From assembly GCA_013696965.1 (NCBI GenBank), contig JACCXN010000003.1, positions 1 through 57,117 on the forward strand: DNA of 57,117 nt, read 5' to 3'. The notes below the pieces were generated by a model that saw only the letters and a program-made list of their open reading frames with translations, did no database searches and was not told the origin of the DNA. The position numbers and the translations under genes are program-made. How positions within the stretch are numbered: position 1 is the stretch's first letter; every line of letters begins with the position of its first letter. Positions 4,476-51,987 of the stretch are shown in pieces. The DNA is from Bacteroidota bacterium (GTDB taxonomy: Bacteria; Bacteroidota; Bacteroidia; JACCXN01).

Positions 4476-4550
4476 AGTGCGAAATTAAAGATTCGTGAAT
4501 ACAATTAAAAAATAATTATGGATGAACAATTCCAGCGACAACGAAAAAAC

Positions 4551-4944
4551 AAATTATACACATATGAAATAGCCATGCACGAACCGTTCACAAACAGCAA
4601 TGAATATAACATGGCGTATTCCATATGACATTTAAAAAAACAATTATATACATATGAAATAGCCATGCACGAACCGTTCACAAACAGCATTGAATATAAC
4701 ATGGCTATACCAAATGACAGTTAAAAAACAAATGCTTTAGCATTCTTGAGTTCCTTAAAGGAAAAATTAAAAACGAATAAATTATATACATATGAAATAG
4801 CCATGCACGAACCGTTCACAAACAGCAATGAATATAACCTGGCTATCCCGATAAATCGGGATGCCATTTAAAAAACAAATGCTTTAGCATTCTTGAGTTC
4901 CTTAAAGGAAAAATTAAAAACGAATAAATTATATACATATGAAA
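4551..4944 (+). repeat. tandem array of a dispersed palindromic element (three copies)
   Basis: Three copies of one element, cores at about 4569-4617, 4659-4708 and 4797-4846. Each has terminal arms ATAGCCATG and CATGGCTAT (the right arm is imperfect in copies 1 and 3) around the constant block GCACGAACCGTTCACAAA. The segment 4721-4797 is repeated exactly at 4868-4944 (77 bases, offset 147) and includes two small hairpins (AATGCTTTAGCATT and TTCCTTAAAGGAA). Each copy begins with a near-identical leader ending ACATATGAAA, which in the copies continues TAG and at 4939 becomes the true start of the FAH gene. Copy 3 carries a nested palindrome ATCCCGATAAATCGGGAT. Further copies lie at 33291-33375, 50941-51025 and 51901-51987. 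Confidence 0.9.
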
Positions 4945-5550
4945 ATTATCTGTATTGGCCGAAATTATGCTGAACATGCAAAGGAACTTAGCAATGCTGT
5001 ACCAAAAGAGCCTGTTGTTTTTTTAAAACCAGATACTGCATTACTAAAAAACAGGCAGAGCTTTTATTATCCTGAATTCTCCAGGGAAATTCACCATGAA
5101 TTGGAATTAGTTATAAAAATAAGCTCCCCAGGTAAAAATATAGAAGAGAAATTTGCACACAAATACTACTCAGAAATAAGCCTGGGAATAGATTTCACTG
5201 CCCGTGACCTGCAACAAGAATGCAAAGAAAAAGGATTACCATGGGAAAAAGCGAAAGCTTTTGACAGTTCTGCTCCCATAGGGGCTTTTGTCTCTAAGGA
5301 TTCTTTTAATGATTTAAAGGATCTTAATTTCCATCTTAATATAAATGGCAATACCGTGCAAAAGGGAAATTCAAAGGATATGATTTTTACAATTGATTCA
5401 ATTATTTCTTATGTTTCTAAATTTTTCACTTTAAAAAGAGGAGATCTTATTTATACCGGCACACCAGCTGGTGTAGGCCCAGTTAAACAGAATGATCTTT
5501 TAGAATGTTTTCTTGAGGGAAATAAATTATTGTCATTTAAAGTTAAATGA
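4939..5550 (+). CDS. fumarylacetoacetate hydrolase (FAH) family protein, FAHD1/YcgM-like
   Basis: A 203-residue single-domain FAH-fold enzyme. It has the family opening IGRNYAEHAKEL and FLKPDTALL, a metal-binding pair in HHELELVI (Glu54, Glu56), Asp85 in GIDFTARDLQ, and the closing YTGTPAGVGP loop. Members bind Mg2+ or Mn2+ and cleave or decarboxylate acylpyruvates and oxaloacetate; the length fits the short FAHD1/YcgM group. The substrate cannot be told from sequence. The start codon is the last ATG of the repeat array, so its leader and promoter are the repeated sequence itself. It is convergent with the subtilase gene. Confidence 0.9.
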   Translation: MKIICIGRNYAEHAKELSNAVPKEPVVFLKPDTALLKNRQSFYYPEFSREIHHELELVIKISSPGKNIEEKFAHKYYSEISLGIDFTARDLQQECKEKGLPWEKAKAFDSSAPIGAFVSKDSFNDLKDLNFHLNINGNTVQKGNSKDMIFTIDSIISYVSKFFTLKRGDLIYTGTPAGVGPVKQNDLLECFLEGNKLLSFKVK

Positions 5551-33290: not shown

Positions 33291-33375
33291 ATTTGTTTTT
33301 TAAATGTTATCCCGATTTATCAGGAGCCATATTAAATTTATTCGTGTTTATACACGGTTTTAGCATGTCTATTTC
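33291..33375 (-). repeat. diverged copy of the dispersed palindromic element
   Basis: Read on the minus strand this follows the third copy of the 4.5-kb array with scattered changes. On the plus strand, TTTGTTTTTTAAATG and TATCCCGATTTATC match the array's flank with only short gaps, followed by GCCAT, an AT-rich middle, ACGGTTTTAGCATG in place of ACGGTTCGTGCATG, and TCTATTTCA. It lies just after ndk and directly before a double hairpin terminator. The arms are eroded (GCCAT/AGCATG), so this is an old copy. Confidence 0.7.
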
Positions 33376-49294: not shown

Positions 49295-50935
49295 CTATTG
49301 AATCATTATTTTCTTTGTGATAGTGTTTTCTGAATACATCAGCTTAAAAAAATAAACTCCGGGAGCCATTGTACTAAGGTCAAAGTTGTTGTTATAAGAT
49401 TCTGTACCATTTATCTTTTCCCACATTATTTGTTTTCCTGTGTTGTTATAGATCCCTACCATCACTTGATCAGAATCAAATGGTTTAAAACTTAAGTTAA
49501 ATCTCCCATTATTTGGATTTGGGAAAACCTGAAGTTCAATAATTTCTTGAGAAAACTTTTCAATGCCAATTATTAAATTAAAATCAATGGTATCGCTATT
49601 GCTGCATCCCAGCGCATCTGTTACTTTTACAAAATATTCCCCTGGGGTATTAACTGTTATATCCTGTGTGGTTACACCTGTACTCCAAATATAAGTAGAA
49701 CCGGAGTTTTGAGCATCTAAAATTACTTCAGAACCCGCAGGCAGATCAGAATCAGGACCTAAATCAACTAAGGGTAAAAAATTAACCCTAACTTCAACAG
49801 TATCGTATCCCATACAACCATTTATATCTATAACCTTTACAAAGTAATCTCCATGAGTTTTAACAGTAATGGATTTTGTGTTCTGCCCATTGCTCCAAAA
49901 AAACAATTCTGCACAAGATGAGTTAAGAATAACAGAATCACCATCACAAAAAGCCAGTGAGGTATTAGAGGTAATTTCCGGAATAGGACTTGCAAGAATA
50001 TCAACTATGACTGTTTGTGAAACTGCTGAACAATTATTTTGATTCCAAAGGGTGAATGAATAACTTCCAGCGGATTTAACAGTAATGGAATTTGAAGTTT
50101 CACCTGTATTCCACACATAGATTCCTGCATATCCTGCATAAAGTATCACAGAATCTCCAGGGCAAAAAGAGGAATTCCCTATTGTATTAATTACAGCAAC
50201 GGGTGCGGGTATAACAGTTATTGATAAAGAATCAGATATTGCAGAATTTCCATTTGAATCAAAAACAGTTACTGAAACTTCTCCCGAAGTTTTTACAGTA
50301 ACAGAACATGTAGTTTGTCCTGTGCTCCAAAGATAACTATCACCTTGACTTGATGTTAAAACTACTGAATCATTGGAACAGAATGTCAATGGACCACTTG
50401 CAGTTACAACTGGTTGAATGTTTGTTGGAGTTATTCTGATTTCAAACCAGGCAGATGCACCAGTTTCAGCTCCACTTGCATTAAATGAGAACATCATTTG
50501 TGCTCCATTAATTTCATAAACAGAATTATCTCTCAGGTCTACAAGCTGAACTAGCAGGTTTGGCAAACTCACATTATTCTCGATATTAATTGTAAAGGTG
50601 CCGGAATTATTAAATTTCAAGTAAACAGGTATTTGTACTGATAAATCTAGAGGAGGTAAACTATTTATCGACAGTGAATAATTTTCCAGTGATTTACTAT
50701 AAATTGATGGAACTGATGCATTGTTACTGAATAATTTGTGAGCATCAAACGGAGGATCAAAAGATTCCGTAGCTCCAGTTCTAAAAGCAATAATTGACTC
50801 ATCGGAATAAGCACCTTTAACAATTTTTAATCCCAAGTGATCAATTGCATTAGAAAATTGGGGAAGAGCCAGAAAAATAAAAAATAAGGTAAGGCATTTA
50901 ATAATAATTAGATTTTTGGTTTTGCTTGTTTTCAT
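49295..50935 (-). CDS. T9SS-sorted surface protein with Ig-like repeats
   Basis: 546 residues. A signal peptide (about 1-30, LTLFFIFLALPQFSNA) is followed by a roughly 130-residue domain (GAYSDESIIAFRTGATESFD, AHKLFSNNASVPSIYSKSLE, YSLSINSLPPLDLSVQIPVY) that is clearly homologous to residues 856-990 of the large protein at 52216-56148. Four Ig-like repeats of about 70-80 residues follow, each with a CPGDSVIL / Y-x-WSTG / ITVKTSGxYxV pattern. The last 80 residues are a type A sorting domain (LQVFPNPNNGRFNLSF, GVYFFKLMYSENTITKKIMI). A cell-surface adhesin-like role is likely. The start codon abuts a copy of the palindromic element. Confidence 0.9.
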   Translation of the reverse strand: MKTSKTKNLIIIKCLTLFFIFLALPQFSNAIDHLGLKIVKGAYSDESIIAFRTGATESFDPPFDAHKLFSNNASVPSIYSKSLENYSLSINSLPPLDLSVQIPVYLKFNNSGTFTINIENNVSLPNLLVQLVDLRDNSVYEINGAQMMFSFNASGAETGASAWFEIRITPTNIQPVVTASGPLTFCSNDSVVLTSSQGDSYLWSTGQTTCSVTVKTSGEVSVTVFDSNGNSAISDSLSITVIPAPVAVINTIGNSSFCPGDSVILYAGYAGIYVWNTGETSNSITVKSAGSYSFTLWNQNNCSAVSQTVIVDILASPIPEITSNTSLAFCDGDSVILNSSCAELFFWSNGQNTKSITVKTHGDYFVKVIDINGCMGYDTVEVRVNFLPLVDLGPDSDLPAGSEVILDAQNSGSTYIWSTGVTTQDITVNTPGEYFVKVTDALGCSNSDTIDFNLIIGIEKFSQEIIELQVFPNPNNGRFNLSFKPFDSDQVMVGIYNNTGKQIMWEKINGTESYNNNFDLSTMAPGVYFFKLMYSENTITKKIMIQ

Positions 50936-50940
50936 ATCTA

Positions 50941-51025
50941 TATAATTTGTTTTTTAACTGTTATTTGGTATAGCCATGTTGTATTCATTAGCGTTTGTGA
51001 ACGGTTCGTGCATGGCTATTTCATA
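50941..51025 (-). repeat. dispersed palindromic element directly upstream of a T9SS gene
   Basis: The minus-strand sequence has intact arms ATAGCCATG (51011-51019 complement) and CATGGCTAT (50970-50978 complement) around GCACGAACCGTTCACAAAC, then TACCAAATAACAGTT and AAAAAACAAATTATA, and runs straight into the ATG at 50935 with ATATGAAA. The core and the junction with the start codon match copy 2 of the array at 4.6 kb. Confidence 0.9.
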
Positions 51026-51786: not shown

Positions 51787-51900
51787 CCACTCCTTTAACA
51801 GTTTTGTTTGAATTTATATCGGTAATAATATTAATGGAACAAAGTTGCTTAATGCCAATAAAAAAAGCAGTATTTTATACTAATTGTTTTTCAAATGTAG

Positions 51901-51987
51901 ATAATTTGTTTTTTTAGTTGTCATATGGAATACGCCACGTTATATTCATTAGCATTTGTGAACGGTTCGTGCATGGCTATTTCATAT
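51901..51987 (-). repeat. dispersed palindromic element
   Basis: The minus strand has the intact left arm ATAGCCATG, GCACGAACCGTTCACAAA, then AATGAATATAACGTGG and GCGTATTCCATATGACA. The variant right end (GTGGCGTATTCCATATGACA) is shared with copy 1 of the array at 4.55 kb, not with copies 2 and 3, so at least two sub-types are present in this window. It lies between the T9SS fragment and the large T9SS gene. Confidence 0.9.

What the first reader, a model, noticed from the sequence alone, without database searches (positions are those of the whole stretch)
4551..4944. Undescribed dispersed palindromic element family, at least six copies in this window
A 75-90 base element recurs at 4551-4640, 4641-4730, about 4781-4870, 33291-33375, 50941-51025 and 51901-51987 in both orientations. 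Shared features are terminal arms ATAGCCATG and CATGGCTAT, a conserved block GCACGAACCGTTCACAAA with an internal GAAC-C-GTTC mini-palindrome, and a leader ending ACATATGAAA. Copies 46 kb apart keep the block unchanged while flanks vary, which suggests recent spread or selection on the block. It encodes no protein. It could be a MITE-like or REP-like mobile repeat, or a structured regulatory leader. I know of no named family with this sequence, but I cannot search.
Basis: partly seen in the sequence, partly recalled or inferred. Interest (0 to 1): 0.78.

Follow-up and report, generated by a model that had tools for sequence, protein, structure and literature searches.

The report
Mobile element that lands on start codons
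A roughly 90-base mobile DNA element in Bacteroidota inserts exactly after the letters ATGAA, usually a gene's own start codon, and carries a replacement start codon at its far end, so the gene keeps its reading frame while its entire leader is swapped.

Summary
The repeat is real and much larger than the window: 62 near-identical copies of the 18-base block and about 136 left ends in this 3.9-Mb genome, and relatives in 26 of 119 same-class genomes. The inserted unit is A-TAGCC...CANATGAA, about 90 nt (138-147 nt in a long form). It lies between two ATGAA motifs; the right one is part of the element and is normally the start codon of the next gene. Six filled/empty pairs between two congeneric genomes, plus two interrupted genes in the home genome, show precise insertion after ATGAA with nothing else changed. 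73% of 121 sites are start codons, against 10% of ATGAA motifs generally. A central guide-like segment (TTCCATNTG) covaries with the right end (CANATG-AA) and can instead pair with the target ATGAA, which resembles IS200/IS605 guide/cleavage-site pairing. The mobilising enzyme was not found: no Y1 gene examined is flanked by the element, but Y1 genes occur in all ten carriers examined closely, whereas IS110 transposases and reverse transcriptases are missing from several. Best reading: a non-autonomous, single-strand-type element made harmless by restoring the start codon it interrupts. Nothing matched in Rfam or the papers searched.

The parts
4564..4568 (+). Left-flank target ATGAA of the array (preceded by a remnant of an older copy's right end, 4530-4568)
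   Evidence: sequence; weak CM hit 4486-4565
4569..4658 (+). Unit 1 (90 nt). Stem arms GCCAT 4571-4575 / ATGGC 4611-4615; guide-like TTCCATATG 4619-4627; right end CATATGAA 4651-4658
4659..4796 (+). Unit 2 (138 nt, long form with extra GCTTTAGCATT and TTCCTTAAAGGAA palindromes)
4797..4943 (+). Unit 3 (147 nt, long form with CCCGATAAATCGGG hairpin in place of the guide); its last 5 bases ATGAA are the start of the next gene
4939..5550 (+). Gene whose ATG is supplied by unit 3: fumarylacetoacetate hydrolase family protein (203 aa)
   Evidence: ORF; PF01557 E 3e-51
33299..33372 (-). Degenerate, truncated copy downstream of the nucleoside diphosphate kinase gene; left flank TTTGAA; no right end
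50931..51019 (-). Single unit (89 nt); right end is the start codon of the gene at 49295-50935 (-)
49295..50935 (-). Downstream gene: 546-aa protein with type IX secretion C-terminal sorting domain
   Evidence: PF18962 E 2.9e-13
51890..51980 (-). Single unit (91 nt) with right end ATTTGAA; no ORF follows (a non-start-codon insertion)

Best explanation
This is a family of very short, non-coding, non-autonomous mobile elements of Bacteroidota. SHOWN: the element (about 85-105 nt in most copies; 138-147 nt in a long form) inserts exactly 3' of the pentamer ATGAA. It carries ATGAA as its own last five bases, so the interrupted sequence is restored and another copy can insert at the same spot (tandem arrays). 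It is found mostly at start codons of genes that begin ATGAA, where it replaces the gene's leader with its own A-rich leader and start codon. It has a conserved fold: a stem GCCAT/ATGGC, an inner hairpin whose sequence varies, and a guide-like segment TTCCATNTG that covaries with the right end CANATG(AA). INFERRED: movement as single-stranded DNA by a HUH (Y1-type) transposase acting in trans, with the guide pairing alternately with the element's right end and with the target ATGAA, comparable to guide/cleavage-site pairing in IS200/IS605. INFERRED: the concentration at start codons arises because most other insertions break genes and are lost, while at a start codon the element restores start and frame. 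Whether transposition also prefers exposed start regions is open.
For: Insertion: six filled/empty pairs between G007 and G089 (L203/L254, L204/L258, L209/L237, L211/L246, L217/L260, L223/L239); rejoined flanks are 76-95% identical to the empty site, with no gap at the junction. L204/L258 (ATGAAT) places the junction after ATGAA. Two interrupted genes in the own genome read through exactly at the junction: a RAYT gene with an intact paralogue and a SpoIIE-like gene (domain recognised by eye). Tandem gain by insertion into the right-end ATGAA: L222 vs L261. Targets: 100 of 121 left flanks are ATGAA, others mainly TTGAA/GTGAA; 88/121 are start codons vs 10% of 1799 background ATGAA. The target flank shows the A-rich peak at -11 to -13 typical of Bacteroidota starts (PMC6847099). 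Structure: guide/right-end N pair Watson-Crick in 47/55 vs mean 22 and maximum 35 in 20,000 shuffles; 21 double-change cells vs 4.5 in shuffles; inner hairpin stem 4.4 vs 2.8 bp; both pairings appear in folds. Spread. Y1 in all 10 carriers examined; IS110 in 3/10, reverse transcriptase in 3/10.
Against: No transposase was found next to any copy, and no autonomous copy in about 1 Mb of flanking sequence. Y1 genes are common anyway (67 of 93 element-negative genomes), so co-occurrence is weak support; G053 (72% complete) has elements but no Y1 hit. There is one central guide rather than one 5' of each hairpin as in IS200/IS605. The own genome's CCCGATAAATCGGG subfamily has lost the guide. A 4-5 bp target duplication TGAA/ATGAA cannot be formally excluded because the target is nearly invariant.
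Confidence: 0.6

Rival explanations
1. A structured RNA leader that regulates translation. The guide either hides the start codon (CCAUNUG pairs with CANAUGAA) or pairs with the upstream AUGAA, and copies are kept because they are useful.
For: The covarying pair includes the start codon; both pairings are predicted as RNA; the copies sit in 5' leaders of genes with an A-rich translation start region.
Against: Downstream genes share no evident function; about a quarter of sites are not at start codons, including interrupted genes; copies come and go between congeners; some own-genome copies have no guide. Both roles could coexist.
Confidence: 0.2
2. A REP/REPIN-type repeat spread by a REP-associated (RAYT, TnpA-REP) transposase, for example the Bacteroidetes subclass 2.6 with 'atypical secondary structures' (PMC6006769).
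For: Short folded non-coding repeat, high copy number, RAYT-like genes in G000, G048, G031, G007 and G093.
Against: None of 39 Y1/RAYT loci is flanked by the element; those RAYTs have other palindromes at their flanks. No RAYT-like hit in G083, which has at least 12 elements. No GTAG/GGAG foot.
Confidence: 0.15
3. A derivative of an IS110-type (bridge RNA) element, or of a retro-element, recombining at a short shared core.
For: No inverted repeats; conserved core at both junctions; an internal segment complementary to target and end.
Against: IS110 transposase absent from 7 of 10 carriers, including the home genome, G083 and G093; reverse transcriptase absent from 7 of 10.
Confidence: 0.07
4. 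A DDE-transposase MITE with a 4-5 bp target duplication at TGAA/ATGAA.
For: The same motif stands at both junctions.
Against: No terminal inverted repeats. Left copies vary (GTGAA, TTGAA) while the right end stays CANATGAA and covaries with an internal segment, so the right motif belongs to the element.
Confidence: 0.05

Closest known systems
IS200/IS605 family and its non-autonomous derivatives (IS608, ISDra2; PATEs)
   Same: Insertion precisely 3' of a fixed 4-5 nt target with no other change; subterminal hairpin; no inverted repeats; an internal segment complementary to the cleavage site and target (IS608 described in PMC5934647).
   Different: No transposase gene; 85-105 nt in most copies; one central guide located 3' of the single main hairpin serves both junctions; the target is a start-codon motif; no IS with matching ends found.
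REP / REPIN sequences with RAYT (TnpA-REP)
   Same: Short, folded, intergenic, high copy, tandem clusters; Y1-type enzyme suspected.
   Different: No GTAG/CGTC foot; unit includes a non-palindromic A-rich half ending in ATGAA; not found flanking any RAYT; orientation fixed relative to the start codon.
BOX, RUP and other small bacterial interspersed repeats
   Same: Short non-coding mobile repeats that end up in transcripts.
   Different: Those are not known (from my own knowledge) to insert at start codons and replace the start; no sequence relation was tested beyond Rfam.

Membership tests
IS200/IS605 (or derivative) | Inserts precisely 3' of a short fixed target without target duplication | tested here: met
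   junction after ATGAA, flanks otherwise intact (a duplication of the invariant motif cannot be formally excluded)
IS200/IS605 (or derivative) | Right cleavage site at the element's own 3' end, similar to the target | tested here: met
   CANATGAA at the right end in nearly all copies while left flanks vary GTGAA/TTGAA
IS200/IS605 (or derivative) | Subterminal hairpins at both ends with guide 5' of each hairpin | tested here: not met
   One main hairpin on the left; a single guide 3' of it
IS200/IS605 (or derivative) | Internal guide complementary to cleavage site | tested here: met
   Covariation 47/55
IS200/IS605 (or derivative) | tnpA (Y1) in an autonomous copy with the same ends | tested here: not met
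   None in 39 Y1 loci nor in about 1 Mb of loci; not exhaustive
IS200/IS605 (or derivative) | Single-stranded transposition by TnpA | not testable with these tools
   needs biochemistry
REP/REPIN-RAYT | GT[AG]G tetranucleotide at the hairpin foot | tested here: not met
   Foot is (A)TGAAATA
REP/REPIN-RAYT | Copies flank the cognate RAYT gene | tested here: not met
   other palindromes flank the RAYTs
DDE MITE | Terminal inverted repeats and target-site duplication | tested here: not met
   Ends ATAGCC... and ...CANATGAA are not inverted repeats
Known Rfam RNA family | Match above gathering score | tested here: not met

The most novel reading that the evidence does not exclude
A previously undescribed class of guide-bearing mobile element in which one internal guide recognises both its own end and the target, aimed by that guide at gene start codons across Bacteroidota, mobilised by an enzyme not yet linked to any such element, and leaving behind a start-codon-masking RNA hairpin that resets translation of hundreds of genes.
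Probability: 0.25. Interest if true: 0.9.

Novelty: new variant of a known kind. Interest (0 to 1): 0.75.

Why it matters
It is a natural case of a mobile element made nearly harmless by restoring the start codon it interrupts, so it can rewrite 5' leaders genome-wide without killing genes. It gives ready-made filled/empty allele pairs for measuring how a leader change alters expression in Bacteroidota, which lack Shine-Dalgarno sites. If the guide is confirmed, its target could be tested by simple base changes. It also explains some assembly breaks and would confuse start-site and promoter annotation.

Tried and rejected
Structure from own-genome copies alone gave almost no covariation; the pairings only showed once diverged genomes were aligned. 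Y1 genes beside copies in G007:C128 and G089:C212 looked like an autonomous partner, but it is one orthologous locus, the Y1 gene has different palindromes, and the element is simply at the start of the next gene. Orphan right ends in the own genome turned out to be diverged copies, not longer autonomous elements. A scan for left and right ends separated by 190-4500 bases found only nearby units or chance matches. Y1 co-occurrence over 119 genomes is uninformative. The Y2 (IS91-type) search found nothing, but its control did not ring either, so it is inconclusive. No copies on plasmids or sequenced phages by blastn with one window unit; one on an uncultivated virus contig. Integron attC and group I/II intron readings were considered and dropped on size and motif grounds (own knowledge).

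Full report
WHAT IS THERE. The left end GAAATAGCCATGCAC occurs 136 times (control 3) and the right end AAATTATATACATATGAA 197 times with up to three mismatches (control 33). The sixth copy (33291-33375) is an old, truncated one without the block.

TRUE UNIT. Lining up 113 units shows that each begins with A-TAGCC directly after a flanking ATGAA and ends with ATGAA, after which unique sequence begins. In arrays the right ATGAA of one unit is the left ATGAA of the next. In the window the units are 4569-4658, 4659-4796 and 4797-4943, ending in the start codon of an FAA-hydrolase gene, then 50931-51019 (ending in the start codon of a type IX secretion-tail protein) and 51890-51980 (no gene follows).

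IT MOVES, AND PRECISELY. G007 and G089 belong to one genus and both carry the family. Searching for the downstream genes in both gave orthologous loci with and without a copy. For L203/L254, L204/L258, L209/L237, L211/L246, L217/L260 and L223/L239 the empty allele reads straight through ATGAA, and the rejoined filled allele matches it at 76-95% over about 115 nt with no gap at the junction. In L204/L258 the gene starts ATGAAT, which fixes the junction after ATGAA. L222/L261 shows a second unit gained inside the ATGAA at the right end of the first. In the home genome two copies interrupt genes: a RAYT gene (reads ...KQLINE/IMENPQESRKE; the intact paralogue reads KQLINAIKENPQESRKE) and a SpoIIE-like gene with target GTGAA (domain recognised by eye, not by a family search). 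In a seventh pair (L216/L255) the flanks were too diverged to count.

WHERE IT LANDS. Over 121 distinct insertion sites from the home genome and others, 88 (73%) are start codons by a mechanical test (ORF of at least 50 aa and an in-frame stop within 40 codons upstream in the rejoined site), against 10% of 1799 background ATGAA motifs. Left flanks are ATGAA in 100 of 121, otherwise mainly TTGAA or GTGAA, and show an A-rich stretch 11-13 nt upstream of the ATG, the known translation-start signature of Bacteroidota (PMC6847099). The element's own right part (AAATTATATACATATG) carries adenines at -6 and -11 to -13 as well, so it brings a substitute start region. That selection removes most other insertions is inference.

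FOLD. In an alignment of 55 units, mostly from diverged genomes, the stem GCCAT/ATGGC and the pairing CATNTG/CANATG are kept. The variable base N is Watson-Crick paired in 47 of 55 against 22.4 in shuffles (maximum 35 of 20,000), and 21 cells show two-sided changes against 4.5 in shuffles (shuffles do not correct for relatedness, but three of the four pair types occur inside the single genome G007). The inner hairpin differs in sequence between genomes yet its longest stem averages 4.4 bp against 2.8 in shuffles. The same guide-like segment TTCCAT can pair, with a bulged C, either with the right end or with the left-flank ATGAA; both forms are predicted as RNA and as DNA. Caveat: many home-genome copies have CCCGATAAATCGGG in place of the guide.

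DISTRIBUTION. A covariance model finds the family in 26 of 119 same-class genomes and 20 of 84 genera, with 1 to at least 35 copies per genome (an earlier model found 17). An exact 19-base pattern hit 47 contigs in a collection of 84,980 species genomes, of which 46 show the element's architecture in whole or in part, almost all Bacteroidota MAGs plus Pedobacter aquatilis. One copy sits at the start codon of a phage amidase gene on an uncultivated virus contig. No Rfam match and no description in the papers searched.

MECHANISM. Precise insertion 3' of a fixed pentamer, an end that repeats the target, no inverted repeats, and an internal segment complementary to both are what IS200/IS605 elements show (PMC5934647). 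The geometry differs (one central guide, one main hairpin). No transposase is tied to the element: none of 39 Y1 loci is flanked by it and no long copy was seen. Ten carrier genomes examined all have Y1 genes, whereas IS110 transposases and reverse transcriptases are absent from seven of the ten, including the home genome. Y1 is also common in non-carriers, so this only narrows the field. I put about 0.97 on mobility with start-codon restoration and about 0.6 on the full statement including a guide-paired single-strand mechanism.

VERDICT. A real, active, widespread and apparently undescribed family; a new variant of short non-autonomous mobile repeats, with start-codon targeting and restoration as its distinctive trait.

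Noticed in passing
L286:2285-2378 (IMGVR_UViG_3300027265_000045): A copy at the start codon of a phage N-acetylmuramoyl-L-alanine amidase gene, with matching guide CATGTG and end CACATG.
   Followed up: partly
L145 vs L146; L222 vs L261: Orthologous copies in two congeners differ by a swapped inner hairpin (CACGCC/GGCGTG against CTCGGC/GCCGAG or a degraded form), as if that hairpin is replaced as a module.
   Followed up: no
window 4714-4943 and many home-genome loci: A long subfamily with extra palindromes GCTTTAGCATT and TTCCTTAAAGGAA, and a subfamily with CCCGATAAATCGGG in place of the guide; why they arose is unknown.
   Followed up: no
L063:1428-2055 (G000:C42): A RAYT-type transposase gene is broken by a copy of the element; an intact paralogue exists (L062).
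   Followed up: yes
L087:301-488 and window 4486-4568: A copy split by about 100 nt beginning AAACGTAAGTTC; a similar piece lies upstream of unit 1 in the window, perhaps a second small repeat or an older form.
   Followed up: no
L145:1340-1470, L146:1220-1470: A Y1 transposase of the YxxxQxxHH type (subclass 1.2 of PMC6006769, there reported without terminal structures) lies beside arrays of GACAGGGGTTGAA palindromes.
   Followed up: no
all copies: The left junction ATGAAATAG makes a two-codon upstream ORF (Met-Lys-stop) that ends translation from the gene's original start.
   Followed up: no
G000 contigs C42, C43, C59, C60, C84, C94, C98, C99: Arrays of the element sit at contig ends, so they probably break the assembly and copy numbers are underestimates.
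   Followed up: no
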